A program made the position numbers and the translations under genes. A stretch of 64,000 nt of DNA from Actinomyces ruminicola. Its GTDB lineage: Bacteria; Actinomycetota; Actinomycetes; Actinomycetales; Actinomycetaceae. The notes beneath the pieces were generated by a model, which worked only from the letters and a program-made list of their open reading frames with translations, had not been told where the DNA came from and did not search any database. How positions within the stretch are numbered: position 1 is the first letter of the stretch; each line of letters begins with the position of its first letter. Positions 8,873 through 18,783 of the stretch are shown here, in pieces. The stretch lies in the NCBI RefSeq assembly GCF_900103885.1, contig NZ_FNIM01000003.1, positions 89,563 to 153,562 on the forward strand. The letters run 5' to 3'.

Positions 8873-9583
8873 TCATTGCCGCCGACTTCGGCAGTCATCA
8901 CGACCGATGTCGGTGGGACGACGGGTCGGGAGTGGCATCTCGCGGTTCATGCGGGTTCGGAACTCCTCGGGGGTGGCATCGGCGAGAACGGTGGAGCTCA
9001 ACTCCGACAACTGCACCAGGCGTCGCAGCAGGGCCAGGGCAGTGCTGCGGACATCGCGATGCTCGCTCAGCGCCGTCACCGCGGCTCCGTCGACCGTGGC
9101 GATGACGGTCTCCGCTGTGAGGTACAGACCGAGCCCATTGACCACACGGTCGACGGCGGCATTCAGCCGGTTGCGCCCCTCCCCGTAAGCGCGGCCGACG
9201 GGCACGGAGGTGTTGGCGGAGATAAGCTGCATGTAGTGGCCGAGGTACGGTCCGGCATCGGGCAGGGTGGCCGACAACAGGAGCTGGACGGCCTCCTCCA
9301 GCGAGGGAGAGTGATCCAGCGCCTCGACCCTTCTGGCGACACGTTCGGCGCGTTCTGCCCACAGGGCGATGTTCACTCGCCCGGCCTCGTAAAGCAGGTC
9401 ATCCAGGCCGGAGAAGTAGTACGTGGTGGCTGACAGCGAACAGCCGGCTCGTTCCGCGACGCCACGATGAGTCACGGCGCTGGGACCGGATTCACGGATG
9501 ATCTCGGCGGCCGCGTCGATGATGCTGCGACGTCGTGCCGCGCCCTTGGACGTCGCCGGGGTTCTGGGAGTGTCGGTGCTCAC
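8873..9583 (-). CDS. TetR/AcrR-family transcriptional regulator
   Basis: 236 aa. The N-terminal HTH is typical of TetR: RRRSIIDAAAEIIRESG, then AVTHRGVAERAGCSLSATTYYFSGLDDLL (residues about 17-63), followed by an all-helical ligand domain and a basic Arg-rich tail. It is the last gene of the minus-strand series, 207 bp after the BCCT transporter, so it may regulate the transporter/creatininase genes. That role is inferred from position only; the ligand is not predictable, although BetI, a choline sensor, belongs to the same family and also sits by BCCT genes. Confidence 0.88.
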   Translation of the reverse strand: MSTDTPRTPATSKGAARRRSIIDAAAEIIRESGPSAVTHRGVAERAGCSLSATTYYFSGLDDLLYEAGRVNIALWAERAERVARRVEALDHSPSLEEAVQLLLSATLPDAGPYLGHYMQLISANTSVPVGRAYGEGRNRLNAAVDRVVNGLGLYLTAETVIATVDGAAVTALSEHRDVRSTALALLRRLVQLSELSSTVLADATPEEFRTRMNREMPLPTRRPTDIGRDDCRSRRQ

Positions 9584-9790: not shown

Positions 9791-11434
9791 TCAAGACTGA
9801 GCCCGGCGTGCGCAGATGTCGCGGGGCGGGCTGGTACCGGCATGCTTTTGCCGCCTCCGCAGCCTGCGGACGATGTTCACCATCATGAGCAGGATGACGA
9901 CGCTGAAGGGCAGCGCGCCGACGATGGTTCCGGTCTGAATCGTGGTCAGAGCCTTGCCCCCGCCCAGGGTCAGCAGAGCTATCGCCAGGGCCGAGATGAG
10001 TATCGCGAGCACCACCCGGAACCGCGGGGATGCCTTCGCACCCATGGATACGAATCCCGACAGTGCATGCACTCCGGAGTCCAGGGAGGTCACGAAGTAT
10101 GTCCCCACCAGTACCGTGGATACCAGGATGAGTAGACCTCCGACGAGGGGCACGAAGCCGAGCGCCGTGAACAGTCCTGCAGAGACGTCCGCGTTGAGGG
10201 AGTCTCCGACCGCACCATTCGATTCTGTGTCGTAGTGCAGGGCGGCACCACCGATGACACCGATCCATATCATGACGATGATCGTTGGGATGCCGAGCAC
10301 TCCGAGTACGAACTCCCTGAGCGTGCGCCCTTTGGAGATCGAGGCGATGAAGGAGGCGACGAAAGGGGAGAAGGCGATGCACCAGCACCAGATGAAGGTG
10401 GTCCACTGCCCGTTCCACGACTCACTCCACGTGGTGATGCCCGAGCCCAGGACCTCCGGCTCGGAGTACACCGACATGGCGACGAACCGATCGACGAACT
10501 CGCCGACGGACTGCGGCAGGATGTGCAGTATGTACATCGTCGGGCCGAAGACCAGGGTGAGGAAGACAAGGACCACGGATAGGACGGAGTTGAGCTCTGA
10601 GATGAGCCGCATTCCGCGGTTGATCCCGAAGTAGACCGAGATCGCGGTGACCGCTCCCATCGTGGTGATGACGGCGACCTTGCCGGAGGTGGAGACCTCG
10701 ATGCCCAGCAGCGCGGACAGCCCCGAGGACAACTGCAGTGAGGCGAAACCGAAGGACGTGGACAGGCCCAGGATCGTTGCGAGGATGGCGAAGAGCTCGA
10801 TCGCCAACCCGGTGTGGCGCCGGTGCCGTGCCGGGAAGAGATCCTCACAGGCGCCCCGGAATGTGGGTTGCTGTGCGCAGTTGTATGTGGAGTAGGCGAT
10901 GCACAGGGCGACGACGCAGTAGATCGCCCAGGCGGTCAGCCCCCAGTGGAAGTATCCCCAGGACAATGATGCCGAGTCGACGTCTCCCGGATTGGAATCG
11001 GCGAGAGGGTCATCGGTCTTGAGGAGGACGGGCTCGGCGACGGACCAGAAGATGAGTCCTATGCCCTGCCCCGAGGCGAAGAGCATCGAGTACCAGGCGA
11101 AGCGTCCATACTCGGTCCTCGCCTGCGGGCCGCCGAGTCTGATAGATCCGTGGGAGGGAGACAAGGCGATGACTAGGACGAAGGCGAGGGCGAGGACCGA
11201 GAAGACGACGAAGTACCAGGAGAAGTACTCGGTGACGAAAGTGCGGGCCACATCGATGATGGTGGAGGCCTGCTCCCGGAACAGGACGGTCCCCAGGGCC
11301 AGTAGGACGACAACGGCCACCGCCGCGATTCTGATGTTGTTGTCATCGTGGCGTCTGGCATCGGCGCTGATCTGGGCAGAGCCATCCAGCTCCTCACCGA
11401 AGTCATTGGCCCTGGGGCCGTCTTCAGAACTCAT
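9791..11434 (-). CDS. BCCT-family transporter (betaine/carnitine/choline type)
   Basis: 547-aa transporter with 12 predicted membrane helices and a charged 35-residue N-terminal leader. Family hallmarks are FAWYSMLFASGQGIGLIFWS early on and the TM8 signature WNGQWTTFIWCWCIAFSPFV. BCCT proteins import zwitterionic or quaternary compounds (betaine, carnitine, choline) with Na+ or H+ or by exchange. The ATG lies inside the 3' end of the creatininase gene (11-bp overlap), so the two are translationally coupled. Inference: substrates related to creatine, guanidinoacetate or creatinine are plausible, since creatine and guanidinoacetate are small zwitterions like the known substrates. Nothing in the sequence proves this. 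Confidence 0.93.
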   Translation of the reverse strand: MSSEDGPRANDFGEELDGSAQISADARRHDDNNIRIAAVAVVVLLALGTVLFREQASTIIDVARTFVTEYFSWYFVVFSVLALAFVLVIALSPSHGSIRLGGPQARTEYGRFAWYSMLFASGQGIGLIFWSVAEPVLLKTDDPLADSNPGDVDSASLSWGYFHWGLTAWAIYCVVALCIAYSTYNCAQQPTFRGACEDLFPARHRRHTGLAIELFAILATILGLSTSFGFASLQLSSGLSALLGIEVSTSGKVAVITTMGAVTAISVYFGINRGMRLISELNSVLSVVLVFLTLVFGPTMYILHILPQSVGEFVDRFVAMSVYSEPEVLGSGITTWSESWNGQWTTFIWCWCIAFSPFVASFIASISKGRTLREFVLGVLGIPTIIVMIWIGVIGGAALHYDTESNGAVGDSLNADVSAGLFTALGFVPLVGGLLILVSTVLVGTYFVTSLDSGVHALSGFVSMGAKASPRFRVVLAILISALAIALLTLGGGKALTTIQTGTIVGALPFSVVILLMMVNIVRRLRRRQKHAGTSPPRDICARRAQS

Positions 11435-12188
11435 GGCGGATAGCCTCGACCATGCCGGTTGCGGCGGTGTCCAGAAGGATCCGCCCCTTCTCCAGGGTTG
11501 CGTTCCTCGCCGAGGACAGGCAGCCCGACGGCGGGGTCAACTCGGGTTTGATGGGAAGGATGTCGTAGTTTGGCAGGACGGCGGGCGGGTCGTCGGAGAC
11601 CCGCTCCATGTCGACCAGGTCGGGGTGTAGCAGGAGCATGAGGGAGGTCTCCAGCACCCCGCCGTGTTCAAGATCCCAACCCGTGAAGCCCTCGGGGTAG
11701 AGCCGGTCTATGGTCGCGTCGTCGACGAAGTCCCAGTAGGATATGAGTTGACAGATGATCTCGATGCCTCGCGCCCGCAGGTCACGTACCGCCAGGTCGA
11801 CGCCCTCGAAGAGGAACTGGTAGTTTTCGTAGTGGCCGTTGCAGAAGACGAACCTGCGTATTCCGTGTTCGGCCAGCTCAAGGGTGATCTCCTTAGCAAG
11901 GTCGATAAAGGTCTTGCCCGTCATGCTAACGGTGCCCGCCAGGTGATACCCGCCCCCTGAGCGTTGCTGGGACTTGTAACCGAAGGTGATGGCCGGTCCG
12001 ACGACGGCACCTATCCTTTCGGCGACGGCGATGGCCATGTCGGTTGAAAGCAGCTCGTCCACGCACAGGGGCATGTGGGGCCCGTGCTGCTCCAATGAGC
12101 CGACCGGGATGATGACGATCGGGTTGGTGGCGAGGCGTTCGCGGTAGGTGAAGGCGTCCATTTCCTTCATGAGTACGGTCTGTTTCAT
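11424..12188 (-). CDS. Creatininase (creatinine amidohydrolase) family protein
   Basis: 254 aa, the normal length for the family. The metal-ligand set of Pseudomonas creatininase (Glu34, His36, Asp45, His120, Glu122, His178) is fully present as Glu33, His35, Asp44 (SLEQHGPHMPLCVDEL), His119 and Glu121 (CNGHYEN) and His175 (WDLEHGG). Aromatic residues Trp152 and Trp171 lie close to substrate-contacting tryptophans of the Pseudomonas enzyme. This supports a true creatinine-to-creatine ring opener more than a distant family member such as MftE, though other cyclic amides are possible. It overlaps the BCCT gene by 11 bp, and a truncated copy lies just upstream. Together with the nearby amidinotransferase and arc genes it suggests guanidino-compound catabolism. 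Confidence 0.88.
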   Translation of the reverse strand: MKQTVLMKEMDAFTYRERLATNPIVIIPVGSLEQHGPHMPLCVDELLSTDMAIAVAERIGAVVGPAITFGYKSQQRSGGGYHLAGTVSMTGKTFIDLAKEITLELAEHGIRRFVFCNGHYENYQFLFEGVDLAVRDLRARGIEIICQLISYWDFVDDATIDRLYPEGFTGWDLEHGGVLETSLMLLLHPDLVDMERVSDDPPAVLPNYDILPIKPELTPPSGCLSSARNATLEKGRILLDTAATGMVEAIRHEF

Positions 12189-12224
12189 GAGATCAGTGCT
12201 TTCTCGTGCTCGGCTGGGGATGTC

Positions 12225-12488
12225 TCAGCCTCGTTTGTACTGGGGGCGGCCGCGGTCCGGGTGGAGAAAAGTGCCTGAGCGCTGCTGGGACTTGTAACCG
12301 GTGGTGATGGTTGGCCCCACAAGGGCTGCTCCCAGGTGCTCAGCGGTCAACTCGGCCGTCGTAGTTGACAGAAGGACGTCGACGCTCACAGGCATGTGTG
12401 GTCCGTGCTGCTCGACGGCTCCCACGGGGATAAGGCATCGAGCCTCATGATGTTGTTCGTGTTCATGGGTATATGGACTCCTTGGCAA
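12225..12488 (-). pseudogene. Truncated creatininase remnant
   Basis: About 87 codons. The translated core LIPVGAVEQHGPHMPVSVD, followed by PTITTGYKSQQRSG, matches residues about 26-77 of the intact neighbour, including the first Glu/His/Asp ligands. Right after KSQQRSG the homology stops, replaced by about 15 unrelated residues and a stop. The His119/Glu121/His175 half is absent, so no activity is expected. It is most simply a tandem creatininase copy that lost its 3' two-thirds. Confidence 0.8.
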
Positions 12489-12539
12489 ATGGTGGCGGTA
12501 GCGTGCGTGATGGCTCGTCGGATTGATGGGGGCGAGTGT

Positions 12540-13514
12540 TCAGGAGCTCGTCGAGTCGGCGAATGCCTTGTCTGCGCCGGACTTTGCGGGGGCCTCCTGC
12601 TTGTCGTTCTTCGTCGAGAATATGATCTGAGAGACGCCTCCGGCGATGATGAGGGCGCCGCCGAGCCCCTGGGTGAAGGTGATGTGTTCGCTGAACAGGA
12701 TGATACCGAGCAACGTGGCCATGATTGTCTCCTGGTAGGAGATGGTGGCCAGTTCGGAGGCGAGTAGGATCTTCGAGGCGACCGTCAGGAAGAAGAAGGC
12801 GCCGAACCCGGTGATAAAGGCTGCCACGACGAGCACGGTCCAGCCGCGGGCGGTCATCTCAGACAGGTCCGGGCGATTAACGAGGAGGATCGTGCCTAGT
12901 GTGATGATCGCGAAGGTGAAGTTGCAGTAGGAGCGTATATCGGAGTCGACATCGGTCCGGTAGCGGCTGAAGAAGAGGAAGAGGCCGTAGGCCACGCCGG
13001 AAGCCAGGGCTACGAGATTGCCGGCCATGTACTTGGGGTCAAGGTCTAGGCTGACGGTGAATCCCTCGCCCGAGGTGTAGTTTATGATGCCTATAATCAT
13101 TAGGCAGCCGATAAGCACGGCGGCCAGTGATAGGCCGGTGACCTTTGTGAAGGGCTCCTTGAGGAAGATCGTCGCCAGTACCGTAGAGTATACGGGTCCG
13201 GTGTAGATGAGGAAGGCGGCGTTCGACAGGGTCGTCATTTGGGTGGACATGACGTAGAGGCCGGAGAGCAGGCCCAGGAAGATGCCCGTGAGGATGACGG
13301 CAGGAGATATCCTGAAGTTGCGGAACTTATGGAATCTCCGTGTTGCCAGGAATATCGCCGTCATTCCCAGGAATCCGGCGAAGCTGCGGTTGAACGAAAT
13401 AAAGAGCCCCGGCGCCTCGATATAGCGGGCGAAGGCGCCGATTCCTCCCATCAGGCTCGATGAGAGAAACATGAATGCGAATCCCTTGAGTTTTTCTCGA
13501 CTCGATGAGTCCAA
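12540..13514 (-). CDS. EamA/DMT-superfamily transporter
   Basis: 324-aa membrane protein with ten predicted helices in two EamA halves, the second ending GLGGALIIAGGVSQIIF, plus a hydrophilic 25-residue tail. No ATG fits the N-terminus. TTG at 13514 is placed 6 bp after a perfect AAAGGAG and gives the sequence (M)DSSSREKLKGFAFMFLSSS, so a TTG start is proposed. DMT proteins usually export amino acids or metabolites. It follows the amidinotransferase gene after a strong hairpin, so it may start a second unit with the creatininase and BCCT genes. A role exporting glycine, sarcosine or a similar product, or exchanging guanidino compounds, is guesswork. Confidence 0.88.
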   Translation of the reverse strand: MDSSSREKLKGFAFMFLSSSLMGGIGAFARYIEAPGLFISFNRSFAGFLGMTAIFLATRRFHKFRNFRISPAVILTGIFLGLLSGLYVMSTQMTTLSNAAFLIYTGPVYSTVLATIFLKEPFTKVTGLSLAAVLIGCLMIIGIINYTSGEGFTVSLDLDPKYMAGNLVALASGVAYGLFLFFSRYRTDVDSDIRSYCNFTFAIITLGTILLVNRPDLSEMTARGWTVLVVAAFITGFGAFFFLTVASKILLASELATISYQETIMATLLGIILFSEHITFTQGLGGALIIAGGVSQIIFSTKNDKQEAPAKSGADKAFADSTSS

Positions 13515-13642
13515 CGTCCGCTCCTTTGCGGGGGGCGTCGCCGACGAAGAGCGCCGGCGACAGAGTAGTGATAAGTGTGGGACTGGCGAAGACACGGCGA
13601 TCGGTCGACTGCATGTGGCCGAGAACGTCCGGCTACGCCCAC

Positions 13643-13680
13643 GCCGTGGGTGACGGTCGTCGCCGACCGTCACCCACGGC
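13643..13680 (-). terminator. Perfect 17-bp hairpin after the amidinotransferase gene
   Basis: Arms 13643-13659 (GCCGTGGGTGACGGTCG) and 13664-13680 pair without a mismatch around a 4-base loop (TCGC). There is no U-tract, as is common in actinobacteria. It lies 27 bp beyond the amidinotransferase stop and separates it from the EamA gene. Confidence 0.75.
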
Positions 13681-13707
13681 ATGCGGTGACGGCGCTGAGT
13701 TCTCGGA

Positions 13708-14835
13708 TCAGACGAGGGTCGGGTCCTCGACCTGGTTCGGGAAGTAGTCCTCGCAGCCGCCCTCGCGGTAAACGTCCGCGGTGGCGCAGTGCAGCGCGCC
13801 GCCGAAGGGGTAGGCATCGCGGAACGGCACGGGGATGACATTCATGCCGAGCTTGTCCATCTGCTCCATCTGGTGGACCTCGGAGGCCTCGCAGATGACC
13901 GTCTTGTGGTCGAGCACCAGACAGTTCATGGACAGCCACACCGAGGAGTAGCACAGCGGCGGGGGCGTGTCGTGAGCCGGCTGGGCGGCGTCGACGATCT
14001 GCCAGTCGTTGGCCTCGAAGATCTTGCGCTGCTCCTCGGGCAGACGACGCTGCGGGTTGTTGATGATCAGACCGGGCCGCAGCGGCACGAAGGTCGCATC
14101 AATGTGGATCGGGTAGGGGTCGCCCGGGAAGTTGACCGCGTGCACCCGCAGGTCCGGGTAGTAGCGCTTGAACCACTCCATGGCCGTGCGGTTGGTGGTC
14201 AGGCCGTGCTGGATGAACAGGTCCTTGCCCAGCCGGAGCACGTCGGCGGCGTCCCACATGGGCTCGACCTCGGTGGTGACGAAGTCCTTGTTCGCGGTAC
14301 GTTCGAGCCGCTCCTCCAGGGAGATCTGCTCGTCGTAGTAGTTGTGCTTGTAGGACTTGTCGGTCAGGCGGGGGCGAGGGGCCTGGGTCCACTTGAACTC
14401 CGGGTCCTCGTCGAAGTACTGCTTCATGAGCGGCCAGTAGGCCAGGTACTCGAAGTAGCGGCAGCGGAAGGAGTTGGCGGAGGCCATGATCTCGTTGCCG
14501 ATGGTGAGCAGGATGTCGCGCGGCGGCATGCAGGTCATCATCGAGTCGTTGCGGAAGTCCGGCGTCTGAATGTGCTGGTTCCACTGCAGCGGGGTGGGGC
14601 GGTCGACCTTGACGCCGTGCTCCTCAAGGGTCTTGGCGAGGAAGTCGAGCTGGGCGGCCGCCTTCTCCACGGTCTCCAGGGGGCGGGGCCCCCACATGCC
14701 GCGCATCTCGGAGTCGATCGGAACCTTCTCGGAGGTTGCGGGCTCCTCCGGCGGGATGACGGAGTGCTCGGCCCGGCCGACGATGACATGCTTGAGCGGG
14801 TCGAAGTCGTTCCATGAGTTGACGATCTTCGTCAT
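13708..14835 (-). CDS. Arginine:glycine amidinotransferase (AGAT/GATM) homologue
   Basis: 375 aa. Colinear with vertebrate glycine amidinotransferase through the catalytic half: MWDAADVLRLGKDLF, PIHIDATFVPLRPGLI, SVWLSMNCLVLDHK and GGALHCATADVYREG. The catalytic triad of human AGAT (Asp254, His303, Cys407) corresponds to Asp195, His244 and Cys350. The family reversibly moves the amidino group between arginine/ornithine and glycine/guanidinoacetate. Start taken at ATG 14835, 10 bases after AAGGA; a GTG three codons upstream is too close to that site. It is the fourth gene of the arcABC unit, 128 bp after arcC, an unusual neighbour for an arginine deiminase pathway. It is not arginine deiminase, which is encoded separately. 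StrB-like aminocyclitol amidinotransferases are the main alternative, but no such pathway is nearby. Confidence 0.88.
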   Translation of the reverse strand: MTKIVNSWNDFDPLKHVIVGRAEHSVIPPEEPATSEKVPIDSEMRGMWGPRPLETVEKAAAQLDFLAKTLEEHGVKVDRPTPLQWNQHIQTPDFRNDSMMTCMPPRDILLTIGNEIMASANSFRCRYFEYLAYWPLMKQYFDEDPEFKWTQAPRPRLTDKSYKHNYYDEQISLEERLERTANKDFVTTEVEPMWDAADVLRLGKDLFIQHGLTTNRTAMEWFKRYYPDLRVHAVNFPGDPYPIHIDATFVPLRPGLIINNPQRRLPEEQRKIFEANDWQIVDAAQPAHDTPPPLCYSSVWLSMNCLVLDHKTVICEASEVHQMEQMDKLGMNVIPVPFRDAYPFGGALHCATADVYREGGCEDYFPNQVEDPTLV

Positions 14836-14963
14836 GGTGGTCACTTCCTTAGTGAGTGTGTGTCGGTGCGTCTGCTGCCTGATAGTTGCGGACGGTGGGT
14901 CGGTTCTTGAAGATCTGGTGGTTGAGTGCTGGCATCACCTTCTCGACGTGTGTCTCGGTAGGT

Positions 14964-15944
14964 TCAGAACTGTTGGTGACGGGGGAACATGAGTCCCGGC
15001 ATGGGCGGGCGGATGTCCTCCGGTCCGCCGTAGTCCCCGCCCGCGGTGACGATGGTTCCCGCGGTGCCGTCGATAATCTCGGTGGTGTCCTCCAGGCGGC
15101 CAATGGCGGCCATGTCTCCGGTCAACTCCACGAAACGGCACACCGCCTCCACCTTGGGTCCCATTGAGCCGGCGGGCAGGTCCAGGGCGCGCAGAGATGC
15201 CGGGGTGGCCCGGTCGATGCGCCGCTCCTGCGGGGTGCCATAGCCGGTCCTCACGCCGTCGACATCGGTGAGAATGAGCAGGGCGTCGGCCTCCAGGTGC
15301 TCTGCGAGCACGGCGGCGGTCAGATCCTTGTCGACGACGGCCTCGACGCCCTCCAGCTTGCCCTTGGCGTTGCGGATCACCGGTACTCCGCCCCCGCCGG
15401 AGCAGACGACTACGGCGCCGGCCTGAAGCAGGATGCGGGCCATGCGCGTCTCGATGAAACGCTGCGGTTTGGGAGAGGCGACCACACGACGCCAATGGGC
15501 GCCGTCGGGCTTGACGGTCCAGCCTCGCTCGGCCGCAAGCGCCCGGGCCGTGGCCTCGTCGTAGACCTCGCCCACGAACTTGGTGGGGTTGTTGAAGGCC
15601 GGATCGCCGGAAAGGACCAGGGTCTGGCTGATCAGCGAGGCGACGTGGCGGCCCGGCAGTGCGTTCTGCATGGCCTGGAGGAGCCAGTAGCCGATCATGC
15701 CCTGGGTCTCGGCTCCGAGTGTGTCGAAGGGGTAGGGCTCGCTCAGCCGCTCGTCGTTGGCGGACTCCAGAGCCAGCGTTCCGACCTGCGGGCCGTTGCC
15801 GTGGGTGATGATGAGCTCATGCTCCTCGGCCAGTGCGGCCAGCGCCTTGGCCGCCCGCTTGACGTTGGCGATCTGGGTGCGGGCGTCGGGCTTGTCTCCC
15901 CGACGCATGAGCGCATTGCCTCCGAGTGCGGCGACGATTCTCAT
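14964..15944 (-). CDS. arcC: Carbamate kinase
   Basis: 326 aa, usual length about 310. Opens MRIVAALGGNALMRRGD, the amino-acid-kinase nucleotide loop, with ITHGNGPQVG and VVCSGGGGVPV further on and AVVDKDLTAAVLAEHLEAD, the Lys-containing carbamate kinase motif. It makes ATP from carbamoyl phosphate and ADP, the energy-yielding last step of the arginine deiminase pathway. It starts 7 bp after the arcB stop, so the two are translationally coupled. Confidence 0.96.
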   Translation of the reverse strand: MRIVAALGGNALMRRGDKPDARTQIANVKRAAKALAALAEEHELIITHGNGPQVGTLALESANDERLSEPYPFDTLGAETQGMIGYWLLQAMQNALPGRHVASLISQTLVLSGDPAFNNPTKFVGEVYDEATARALAAERGWTVKPDGAHWRRVVASPKPQRFIETRMARILLQAGAVVVCSGGGGVPVIRNAKGKLEGVEAVVDKDLTAAVLAEHLEADALLILTDVDGVRTGYGTPQERRIDRATPASLRALDLPAGSMGPKVEAVCRFVELTGDMAAIGRLEDTTEIIDGTAGTIVTAGGDYGGPEDIRPPMPGLMFPRHQQF

Positions 15945-15951
15945 GGTCGCA

Positions 15952-16959
15952 TCAGTCCCATTCGCCCAGGGTCGCCACCATGACGGCCTTGATGGTGTGC
16001 ATACGGTTCTCCGCCTGGTCGAAGGCGACGTTGCGCTCGGTCTCGAAGACGTCGTCGGTCACCTCCAGGCCGTCCAGTCCTGTCTTGGTGTAGATGTCCT
16101 CCCCGACGGTCGTGTTGCGGTCGTGGAAGGCCGGCAGGCAGTGCAGGAACTTCACGTCCGGGTTGCCAGTCCGCTCTACTAGGGAGGCGTTGACCTGGTA
16201 GGGCTTGAGCAGGGCGATGCGCTGATCCCATACCTCCTTCGGCTCGCCCATGGACACCCACACGTCTGTGTACAGGAAGTCGGCTCCCTTGACGCCCTCA
16301 TCGACGTCGGAGCCGATGGTGATCCGGGCGCCGGACTCCTCCGCCAGGCGCCTGGCCGAGGCGACGACGTCGTCGGCGGGCAGCAGTTCGGCGGGCCCGA
16401 CCAGGCGCACGTCCATGCCCATGAGGGCCCCGGAGACGAGCAACGAGTTGGCAACGTTGTTGCGACAGTCGCCCAGGTAGGCGAAGGAGATCTCCTTCAG
16501 CGGCCGCTCCGCGTGTTCCAGCATCGTCAGCTGGTCGGCCAGGGCCTGGGTGGGGTGCCAGTCGTCGGTCAGCCCGTTCCACACCGGCACGCCGGACAGG
16601 TCGGCGAGTTGCTGGACGTGTTCCTGCTTGCGGCCCCGGAACTCGATGCCGTCGAACATGCGCCCCAGCACGCGGGCGGTGTCGGCGACGGACTCCTTGT
16701 GCCCCATCTGAGAGCCGGAGGGGTCGAGGTAGGTGGTACTGGCTCCCTGGTCGGCGGCGCCGACCTCGAAGGCACAGCGAGTGCGCGTAGAGGTCTTTCC
16801 GAACAGCAGGGCGATGTTCTTACCCTTGAGGCGCTGGACCTCCCGGCCCGCCCGCTTGTCGGCCTTGAGCTGGCCGGCCAGATTGAGCAGGATGCTCCAC
16901 TGCGAGGCCGTGAAGTCGAGCTCCTTGAGGAAGGAGCGCCCGGACAAAGGATGCGGCAT
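15952..16959 (-). CDS. arcB: Ornithine carbamoyltransferase (catabolic)
   Basis: 335 aa. The carbamoyl-phosphate loop STRTR is at residues 57-61. [12 protein letters not shown], the [11 protein letters not shown] loop and the HCLPAFHD motif holding the catalytic Cys are all present. In the pathway it phosphorolyses citrulline to ornithine and carbamoyl phosphate. AGGAGA sits before the ATG. The 335-residue length and position between arcA and arcC favour the catabolic ArcB role over anabolic ArgF. Its product ornithine is also the amidino acceptor of the nearby AGAT homologue. Confidence 0.96.
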
Positions 16960-16993
16960 GTTGTTCTCCTGATGTGTTTCGAATGCGGATGGA

Positions 16994-18217
16994 TCAGTCG
17001 ACGGGATTGCGCAGGACTGGGCAGCTCATGCAGTGTGGTCCGCCACGGCCGCGGCCCAGCTCCGACCCGGGAATGGTGAGCACCTCGATGCCCTTGCTCG
17101 TCAGGTACCTGTTGGTGTTGACGTTGCGCTCGTAAGTGATGATCGTGCCGGGGGCGATGGCCAAGGAGTTGGCGCCGTCGTCCCACTGCTCGCGGGCGGC
17201 GGAGCGGGAGTCCTGGGGGGTGGTCAACACGACGATCTCATCGAGCCCGAGGGCCTCGGCGATGACTTGGTGCATGAGCTCGGGGGCGTTCTCCCTGACC
17301 TCGATCTCATCGGGGCTGTCGCCGGGGCGCAGTGTGACGGTGGGGAGCATCCCGGCGCCCGCATACTTGGTGAAGGTGCCGCGGTCCACCATCGTCATGA
17401 TGGTGTCCAGGTGCATCTGTGCACGCGACTTGTGCATGCGCACGGCGACGACCTCACGAATGCCTCCGGCGAAGAGCTTCGCCGCCAGATGCTCCACGCC
17501 CTGCGGGCAGGTACGTTCGGAAACGCCGATCATGACCGCGCCGTTGCCGATGATTTGGATGTCGCCGCCCTCGATGCTCATTTCGCGGCCGAGCGTGCCA
17601 TCGTTCCACAGGGGGAAGTCGGCGTTGGCGAACAGCGGATGCCACCGGTAGATGGCCCGATAGTTGAGGGTCTCGCGGCGGCGGGCGGTGCGGCGCATGG
17701 TGTTGACCGAGACTCCGTCGTAGATCCAGCTGGAGGAGTCCCTGGTGAACAGGTGGTTGGGCAGAGGCGACAGCAGGAGGTCCTCGTCGTCGATGGAGGA
17801 CATGACCATCGAGGAGACGCCGGGAAGCTGTTCAAGGAGCTCTGCCTTGGTGATGCCGGCGATGAGTACCTCGGCCAGTACCGCGGCGGGGGCCTCCTCG
17901 GCCCACCGGCGCACCGTGGGGGCGGCCGTGAGGCCGGTGTGATCAGGGGTGAGTGCGCCTTCGAGCAGGTACTCCCGGGCCGCGGGGACCTCGATGGTGT
18001 CGGTGAGGAGGTCCTGGAGATACAGGATATTGACGCCGCGCTGTTTGAGGATCGCCGCGAACTGGTCGTGATCCTGCTGGGCCCTCTCCAACCACAGCAC
18101 GTCGTCGAACAGAAGCTCGTCCTTGTTGTCCGGGGTGAGTCGGTTCATCTCCCTGCCGGGGCGGTGAAGGATGACCGTTGCTAGCTCGCCGATCTCAGAG
18201 GCGACGGAAAACTTCAT
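16994..18217 (-). CDS. arcA: Arginine deiminase
   Basis: 407 aa, standard length. Catalytic residues known from Pseudomonas ADI (Asp166, Glu224, His278, Asp280, Cys406) are found as Asp160 (HLFTRDSS), Glu216 (MSIEGGD), His269 and Asp271 (QMHLDTIMT) and Cys396 ([11 protein letters not shown]). It converts arginine to citrulline and NH3 in the cytosol. Start at ATG 18217 ([20 protein letters not shown]) behind GGAG; a longer in-frame extension upstream is not conserved-looking. First gene of arcA-arcB-arcC-amidinotransferase. There is no arcD antiporter or ArgR gene in the window. Confidence 0.97.
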
Positions 18218-18783
18218 GTCGTGTCTCCAGGTCTTGATCTTCGGCACACCTGCGTGCCTGCGTGGGGTGGGTGCCCCGTCACGATTGGGACAAGCGTACC
18301 AATGTTCGTGTGAACCTAAAAGAGGGGTGGGCGGATTTCTGGTACGTTTGTGCAAAAAGTCTAGCCCGGGTGGCGGGCGGCCTTTCTCGGAGAGGCTCGT
18401 TCACGCAGGTTTTCGCAGGCGATGTTTGGACGTCCTGGGGTGGGTGTGGTGAAGAACGGTCAAACGTTGATCTTTGTAGATAACCACAGTTTCGATAGTC
18501 TTGCTTGCTGGTCGGCGGTCGGACGGCGCCTCCACGGCTGCGCGTGTTCTCGGCGTCTACCCGGCTTTCTGGCGGCCTGCCCTGCGTTGCCGTCATCCCG
18601 GCCGCCGCCGACAGCTCGCAAAGGTCGGTCTCAGGTGCCGCCCCGCCGCGCTCTCGAGGCGGAAGAGCTATGAATGTGACTTGCGGCCGGGTCGCAGGAT
18701 TGCGACAGGGTGGCGACAGCCTGGCGGTATGCGGGCCTGTAATCTTCCGGTACACGATTTCTTGAACCCCGGAAGGAACCCCC
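18218..18783. other. 566-bp divergent spacer arcA / DUF3060 lipoprotein
   Basis: Must hold the arcA promoter (minus strand) and the promoter of the lipoprotein (plus strand). A relatively AT-rich patch at about 18295-18360 and another at 18450-18500 are the likely promoter zones. I could not pick convincing -35/-10 pairs, nor a clear ArgR-type operator. No open frame in it looks real. Confidence 0.5.

What the first reader, a model, noticed from the sequence alone, without database searches (positions are those of the whole stretch)
11424..18217. Possible ornithine-cycled, ATP-yielding guanidino-compound pathway: arcABC + amidinotransferase + creatininase + BCCT
Seen: arcA, arcB, arcC and an AGAT homologue with intact catalytic Asp/His/Cys in one minus-strand series, then an EamA transporter, a creatininase with all six metal ligands and a BCCT importer. 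No arcD is present. Known: AGAT chemistry is readily reversible; the ADI pathway turns arginine into ornithine, NH3, CO2 and ATP. Inference: run in reverse, AGAT could move the amidino group of guanidinoacetate (or a related compound such as creatine, made from creatinine) onto ornithine to give arginine, which ArcABC burns for one ATP while ornithine is regenerated. Ornithine would be catalytic, which would explain the missing arginine/ornithine antiporter. I know of no described pathway with this layout.
Basis: partly seen in the sequence, partly recalled or inferred. Interest (0 to 1): 0.85.

Follow-up and report, generated by a model that had tools for sequence, protein, structure and literature searches.

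The report
Creatine-to-ATP operon in Actinomyces
This gene cluster probably lets Actinomyces and related animal-associated bacteria gain energy from creatinine, creatine or guanidinoacetate by moving their amidino group onto ornithine to make arginine and then breaking that arginine down; the chemistry has not yet been tested.

Summary
The genes are real and intact: arcA-arcB-arcC-AGAT-EamA-creatininase-BCCT (minus strand), then TetR. The layout is a conserved module: 80 loci encode AGATs 83-98% identical to the window's. Of 51 AGAT genomes tested, 51 have arcA, 30 within 6 kb of AGAT. A palindrome precedes 23 of 72 AGAT clusters and none of 14 other arcA genes in AGAT genomes. Creatininase, found in 17 of 51, lies within 5 kb of AGAT in 13. 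The window genome and 11 of 15 others with creatininase beside AGAT show no Creatinase_N domain, leaving AGAT as the operon's candidate creatine consumer. A published proteome of Actinobaculum massiliense on urinary catheters puts AGAT and ArcABC in its >8-fold in vivo class (authors: polyketide synthesis). Its missing-arcD argument is weak: arcD is equally scarce in AGAT-free arcA genomes (24 of 75; 2 of 7 with AGAT). Substrate and direction remain unassayed; a creatinine-deaminase route was not searched. Ten open-access literature searches (capped listings) showed no prior description.

The parts
18340..18355 (.). operator-like palindrome, weak copy (consensus TGGTACGnnCGTACCA, 3 mismatches)
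   Evidence: same place as stronger copies in relatives; 3-mismatch matches are at background level
18286..18301 (.). operator-like palindrome (2 mismatches), upstream of arcA
   Evidence: control
16994..18217 (-). arcA, arginine deiminase (407 aa from ATG at 18217)
15952..16959 (-). arcB, ornithine carbamoyltransferase
14964..15944 (-). arcC, carbamate kinase
13708..14844 (-). L-arginine:glycine amidinotransferase homologue (378 aa; an ATG three codons in is also possible)
12540..13514 (-). EamA (DMT) transporter, of the type seen only beside creatininase; proposed sarcosine exporter (inference)
12273..12473 (-). remnant of an older creatininase gene, 89% identical over 55 aa to the one in L019
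11424..12188 (-). creatininase (creatinine amidohydrolase), intact metal and active-site residues
9791..11434 (-). BCCT-family importer with altered aromatic box; proposed creatine/creatinine importer (inference)
8873..9583 (-). TetR-family regulator; a relative lies near AGAT in 53 of 80 loci

Best explanation
The cluster is a dedicated catabolic operon for guanidino acids of animal origin. In the window form, BCCT brings in creatine or creatinine (inferred), creatininase opens creatinine to creatine (family shown, activity inferred), and the AGAT homologue runs toward arginine, moving the amidino group of creatine (or guanidinoacetate) onto ornithine, giving arginine plus sarcosine (or glycine) (inferred). 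ArcA turns arginine into citrulline and NH3, ArcB regenerates ornithine with carbamoyl phosphate, and ArcC makes ATP, NH3 and CO2 (family functions established). Ornithine is then catalytic. Net: creatine + ADP + Pi + H2O -> sarcosine + 2 NH3 + CO2 + ATP. EamA would export sarcosine (inferred). A sister form with another EamA and a ProP-like MFS importer instead of creatininase/BCCT would take guanidinoacetate or creatine directly.
For: (1) Linkage: 51 of 51 AGAT genomes tested have arcA; within 6 kb of AGAT in 30 of 51 (in G040 divergent). In 198 genomes drawn from the order, 7 have AGAT at E <= 1e-100, all 7 have arcA, 6 within 4 kb; arcA in 82 of 198 (P 0.0018, or 0.004 without the window genome). 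Linkage also holds with very different ArcA proteins (30-38% identical to the window's in L045, L046, L075, L076) while AGAT stays at 84-86%. (2) Co-regulation: 33 of 43 palindrome matches (<=2 mismatches, 1.48 Mb) lie within 320 nt upstream of the cluster's first gene, in 23 of 72 clusters, including AGAT itself in L011 where no arc gene is linked; 0 of 14 non-AGAT arcA regions carry one, 2 of 2 AGAT-type arcA on contig ends do. (3) Creatininase over cut-off in 17 of 51 genomes, in 13 within 5 kb of AGAT. (4) No Creatinase_N in the window genome and in 11 of 15 other genomes with AGAT-linked creatininase; 13 of 14 control genomes have that domain. (5) The creatininase-type EamA (53-91% to the window's) is in 15 of 15 creatininase loci and 0 of 65 others. 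(6) All 8 linked BCCTs (the window's included) carry C/T and F where the solved trimethylamine and choline transporters have W in the WW..W motif. (7) A. massiliense AGAT, ArcA, ArcB, ArcC all in the '>8' class of in vivo/in vitro abundance ratio (PMC6314084 table passages). (8) AGAT equilibrium constant near 1 in vitro (PMC9950171 passage), so the ADI reactions can pull it toward arginine.
Against: No enzyme assay. That vertebrate AGAT does not use creatine/sarcosine well is recalled; the bacterial clade has Y for N300 and I for M302 (83 of 83) and M or F for Y164 (63 and 20 of 83), which may or may not allow it. Creatininase is near only 15 of 80 AGAT loci; 25 of the 63 loci with at least 4 kb upstream have no arc gene near, about 20 of them Coriobacteriia, though arcA is in the genome wherever tested. 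arcD is in 26 of 50 AGAT genomes, inside the cluster in Austwickia (L010) and 5 kb from AGAT in G217, and alone in 7 of the 30 linked genomes. The palindrome is absent from most clusters (49 of 72), and in the window alone it is not above chance. Several of the creatininase genomes are MAGs, where absence of creatinase is less sure; other creatine routes (creatine -> creatinine -> N-methylhydantoin as in PMC8864220; ureohydrolases; monomeric sarcosine oxidase) were not searched. The catheter proteome could reflect arginine or low oxygen. The serum-derived quotient in PMC9950171 (0.0075) differs from the in vitro constant. E. lenta in mice lowers creatine but also sarcosine (PMC11149096), whereas the scheme predicts sarcosine release unless it is used; E. 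lenta itself was not among the 80 loci kept.
Confidence: 0.67

Rival explanations
1. Same direction and energy logic, but the true donor is another guanidino compound (guanidinoacetate only, guanidinobutyrate, guanidinopropionate, taurocyamine, homoarginine); the creatininase works on a side substrate or detoxifies creatinine, or creatine is used through creatinine and a deaminase as in Corynebacterium glutamicum (PMC8864220 passages).
For: Most AGAT loci lack creatininase nearby (15 of 80 have it); AGATs with and without creatininase do not form separate clades (10 changes of the label at fewest, at least 4 forced; still more clustered than in 500 shuffles); the two AGATs of L031 are identical proteins. 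Creatinine deaminase was not searched in the window genome.
Against: The window creatininase passes a curated creatininase model by 95 bits and was apparently replaced rather than lost (remnant plus intact divergent copy), which suggests selection for that step here; it sits in the operon with AGAT.
Confidence: 0.18
2. AGAT runs forward: arginine + glycine -> guanidinoacetate + ornithine, with guanidinoacetate exported by EamA or used as a solute or precursor (the polyketide reading of PMC6314084).
For: This is the annotated AGAT direction; EamA carriers are often exporters (recalled).
Against: ArcA in the same operon would compete for arginine; forward synthesis gives no role to creatininase; the A. 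massiliense synthase has a distant locus tag (01364 against 01650). Neighbours of the 80 loci were not scanned for polyketide synthases.
Confidence: 0.1
3. An ordinary ADI operon for arginine with unrelated passengers.
For: ArcABC is complete; arcD is often missing in this order anyway; lone arcD genes elsewhere exist in 7 of 30 linked genomes.
Against: AGAT-arc linkage in Actinomycetaceae, Dermatophilaceae, Georgenia, Adlercreutzia and Desulfobacterota-type loci; shared palindrome; separate arcA-arcD sets without it in the same genomes.
Confidence: 0.05

Closest known systems
Arginine deiminase (ArcABCD) pathway
   Same: ArcA, ArcB, ArcC, same ATP-yielding chemistry
   Different: Arginine would be an internal intermediate made by AGAT; no arcD found in the genome (TIGR00905, PF03606); own upstream palindrome and linked TetR
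Classical creatinine degradation (creatininase - creatinase - sarcosine oxidase; Pseudomonas, Arthrobacter; recalled)
   Same: First step, creatininase
   Different: No creatinase domain found in the window genome; its only GCV_T match is a YgfZ/CAF17-like protein. Georgenia (G023) carries a true creatinase (best PDB match 1chm, E 2e-169) on contig C64 with another creatininase, besides its AGAT cluster
Vertebrate AGAT (creatine synthesis)
   Same: 43% identity, eight catalytic/binding positions conserved
   Different: N300Y and M302I in 83 of 83 of this bacterial clade, Y164M/F; linked to arginine breakdown
CreT-CrnA of Corynebacterium glutamicum ATCC 14067 (PMC8864220, passages)
   Same: MFS creatine importer next to creatininase; the paper's model marks creatinase as absent there too
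   Different: No AGAT or arcABC mentioned in the passages seen; creatine and creatinine serve as nitrogen source, through N-methylhydantoin
SxtG, HsvA and inosamine-phosphate amidinotransferase
   Same: Same family by sequence search
   Different: Weaker matches (157-203 against 279 bits); biosynthetic roles recalled

Membership tests
Arginine deiminase pathway operon | arcA, arcB and arcC together | tested here: met
Arginine deiminase pathway operon | arginine/ornithine antiporter arcD | tested here: not met
   also missing from 51 of 75 AGAT-free arcA genomes of the order sample
L-arginine:glycine amidinotransferase | homology plus Asp/His/Cys and substrate residues | tested here: met
L-arginine:glycine amidinotransferase | amidino transfer between arginine/ornithine and glycine | not testable with these tools
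   needs assay
Creatininase | TIGR04448 above cut-off; metal ligands and active-site Trp/His | tested here: met
Classical creatininase-creatinase pathway | creatinase (Creatinase_N domain) in the genome | tested here: not met
   0 in G000, 0 in 11 of 15 others
Classical creatininase-creatinase pathway | sarcosine-degrading enzyme | tested here: inconclusive
   one weak GCV_T place in G000, a YgfZ/CAF17-like protein (name partly recalled); monomeric sarcosine oxidase not searched
Creatinine deaminase route | creatinine deaminase in the genome | not tested
   no search left
BCCT transporter of quaternary ammonium compounds | aromatic box WW..W | tested here: not met
   two of the Trp are C/T and F in 8 of 8 linked BCCTs (role of the box recalled)

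The most novel reading that the evidence does not exclude
A creatinase-independent, ATP-yielding fermentation of creatinine, creatine and guanidinoacetate, with catalytic ornithine, is widespread in animal-associated Actinomycetota (mouth, skin, urogenital tract, gut Eggerthellaceae) and has passed between them and Desulfobacterota-type bacteria; it would explain creatine loss where a creatininase but no creatinase gene is found.
Probability: 0.5. Interest if true: 0.88.

Novelty: new variant of a known kind. Interest (0 to 1): 0.8.

Why it matters
Creatine and creatinine are abundant in meat, muscle and urine, and their bacterial loss matters in kidney failure and nutrition (recalled). A pathway that burns them through arginine would give these bacteria an energy source independent of free arginine, would reassign an enzyme now read as creatine or polyketide synthesis to creatine breakdown, and makes the unexplained creatine loss reported with Eggerthella lenta in mice (creatininase gene found, genes for the further steps not found: PMC11149096, passages) directly testable.

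Tried and rejected
Missing arcD as proof: rejected after the order-wide control. Separate AGAT clades for creatininase-linked and other clusters: not found. Sigma-70 promoters and terminators in the cluster: no more than in shuffles. Palindrome in the window alone: 3 matches against 2.05 expected, so it stands only by comparison. The small protein x9 of Eggerthellaceae-type clusters: no Pfam or NCBIfam hit for the one copy scanned, AlphaFold pLDDT 82.5 but no PDB match at E <= 0.001. Papers: ten searches of an open-access library; I saw listings (12-20 rows of up to 208 hits) and passages of ten papers, none read whole; nothing seen describes AGAT feeding ArcABC. Subscription papers and preprints are not covered. 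Gene orders come from my own ORF choice and misplace some genes (wrong-strand ORFs over AGAT in L014, L015 and over ArcC in L002); locus counts come from tblastn. In one search the two printed lists of arcD genomes were spoilt by a slip in my script and were recounted.
Full report
WHAT IS THERE. The window lies in a genome of 3.10 Mb in 39 contigs; its nearest AGAT is from Actinomyces sp. AC-20-1, 98%, so the host is Actinomyces-like. On the minus strand lie arcA, arcB, arcC, AGAT, EamA, creatininase, BCCT and then TetR. arcA-arcB and arcB-arcC are separated by 34 and 7 nt, arcC-AGAT by 119 nt, and creatininase and BCCT overlap by 11 nt (from coordinates). The gap before the intact creatininase holds a remnant of another creatininase (12273-12473), 89% identical over 55 aa to the one in L019, whereas the intact gene is 58% identical to L019's and 77% to L057's: the gene seems to have been replaced by a divergent one, not dropped.

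A CONSERVED MODULE. One scan of species genomes gave 150 AGAT relatives, of which the best 80 were kept, 83-98% identical to the window's: Actinomycetaceae, several Micrococcales, Cutibacterium, Eggerthellaceae and other Coriobacteriia, and two records labelled Deltaproteobacteria and Desulfosarcina, which nest inside the Actinomycetaceae AGATs in a tree. By tblastn with the window proteins (>=60 bits, within 6.5 kb of AGAT), of 80 loci 44 have ArcC, 42 ArcB, 36 ArcA, 47 any of them (38 of the 63 with at least 4 kb upstream), 65 an EamA, 53 a TetR, 15 a creatininase, 7 the BCCT. An MFS protein cluster is present in 67 loci by my ORF method; the four members scanned match ProP and TIGR00883 best, below those cut-offs. 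L004 and L031 have two AGATs in one series; the two of L031 are identical proteins.

GENOME-WIDE TESTS. In 51 genomes with AGAT (50 through loci plus the window's), arcA is present in 51 and within 6 kb of AGAT in 30. In 198 genomes sampled from the order, AGAT is in 7, arcA in 82, both in 7 (P 0.0018); in the seventh, G211, AGAT is not near arcA and its match carries one in-frame stop. arcD (TIGR00905) is above cut-off in 26 of 50 AGAT genomes and not in the window genome. In the order sample arcD is in 2 of 7 AGAT genomes with arcA and 24 of 75 arcA genomes without AGAT (P 1.0), so its absence says little. Of the 30 genomes with arcA linked to AGAT, 19 have no arcD above cut-off; in G021, G022 and G027 it adjoins a different arcA; in Austwickia (G009) it lies in the AGAT cluster; in G005, G019, G024, G025, G028, G048 and G049 it is away from any arcA. 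G018 and G043, where the AGAT-type arcA lies on a contig end, also have arcD beside another arcA.

CREATININE LINK. Creatininase above the TIGR04448 cut-off occurs in 17 of 51 genomes; in 13 it lies within 5 kb of AGAT, in G032 14.5 kb away but beside AGAT fragments, and in G036, G040 and G048 it is unlinked. Creatinase_N is absent from the window genome and from 11 of the 15 other genomes whose AGAT locus carries creatininase; 13 of 14 control genomes have the domain. Nine hits lie in the other four genomes. One, in Georgenia (G023), was followed up: it is a true creatinase (best match 1chm, E 2e-169) on a contig with another creatininase and GCV_T matches, i.e. the classical pathway besides the AGAT one; the other eight were not identified. 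The EamA type of the window (53-91% identical) occurs in 15 of 15 creatininase loci and in none of the other 65. All 8 linked BCCTs have C/T and F in place of two tryptophans of the WW..W motif seen in the solved trimethylamine and choline transporters; that this box binds quaternary ammonium is recalled, so a different substrate is an inference. The window genome's only GCV_T match is YgfZ/CAF17-like. Creatinine deaminase, ureohydrolases and monomeric sarcosine oxidase were not searched.

CO-REGULATION. A palindrome, TGGTACGnnCGTACCA, was found by comparing upstream regions. With up to 2 mismatches it occurs 43 times in 1.48 Mb, 33 of them within 320 nt upstream of the first gene of an AGAT cluster (1.6% of the sequence), in 23 of 72 clusters; none of the 23 is in Eggerthellaceae. 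It precedes AGAT itself in L011 and arcB in L056 and L059, where no linked arcA is seen. Of 14 regions with an arcA not linked to AGAT, from 14 AGAT-bearing genomes, 0 have it at this level (3-mismatch matches occur in three); 2 of 2 AGAT-type arcA genes on contig ends have two each. The motif was derived from some of the same loci, and the loci are related, so the binomial value is not a true probability; the control regions are the better test.

EXPRESSION IN NATURE. In PMC6314084 (passages and table) the A. massiliense proteins 01647 ArcA, 01648 ArcB, 01649 ArcC and 01650 AGAT are all in the '>8' class of the in vivo to in vitro abundance ratio, AGAT being fifth by in vivo quantity among the table rows I saw (a list of proteins chosen for possible host crosstalk). 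This is the gene order in L016 (same species, another strain), whose arcA carries two copies of the palindrome, and whose genome has one arcA, no arcD above cut-off and no creatininase. The authors suggest creatine synthesis or polyketide synthesis; catheter biofilms are bathed in urine, which holds creatine, creatinine and guanidinoacetate (recalled), so breakdown fits at least as well. The data cannot tell creatine from arginine as inducer.

MECHANISM. AGAT is reversible with K near 1 in vitro (PMC9950171 passage, citing Ratner and Rochovansky 1956; the same paper derives a much lower quotient from serum). With ArcA removing arginine and ArcB returning ornithine, net flow toward arginine is favoured. 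Shown here: gene content, linkage, conserved residues, palindrome, no creatinase domain found. Inferred: substrates, direction, transport roles, ornithine as catalyst. In PMC11149096 (passages) mice with E. lenta have less colonic creatine; a creatininase gene was found but genes for the further steps were not; sarcosine also fell. The pathway would explain the first but not, by itself, the second; I did not locate AGAT in E. lenta.

VERDICT. Real, non-random and probably a new catabolic wiring of known enzymes.

Noticed in passing
window 12273-12473 (minus): Remnant of an older creatininase gene beside an intact, divergent creatininase: apparent gene replacement.
   Followed up: yes
L085:806-4370 (G000 contig C17): Second arcA-arcB pair in the window genome, with no arcD above cut-off in the genome, of a more divergent ArcA type (346 bits) also found in several relatives.
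   Followed up: partly
L052:3589-4158, L075:12567-13127 and 14 other Eggerthellaceae-type loci: Conserved protein of about 187 aa downstream of EamA with no Pfam/NCBIfam match in the copy scanned; AlphaFold pLDDT 82.5 and no PDB fold match at E <= 0.001.
   Followed up: partly
L097 (G023 contig C64): Georgenia carries a creatininase and a true creatinase on one contig in addition to the AGAT-linked creatininase.
   Followed up: partly
L036:14691, L038:14699: The same palindrome (2 mismatches) precedes a neighbouring amino-acid permease gene (PF00324), possibly part of the regulon.
   Followed up: partly
L046, L047: AGATs of Desulfosarcina widdelii and a deltaproteobacterial MAG (dolphin mouth, judging by its name) nest inside Actinomycetaceae AGATs: likely transfer between phyla.
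   Followed up: partly
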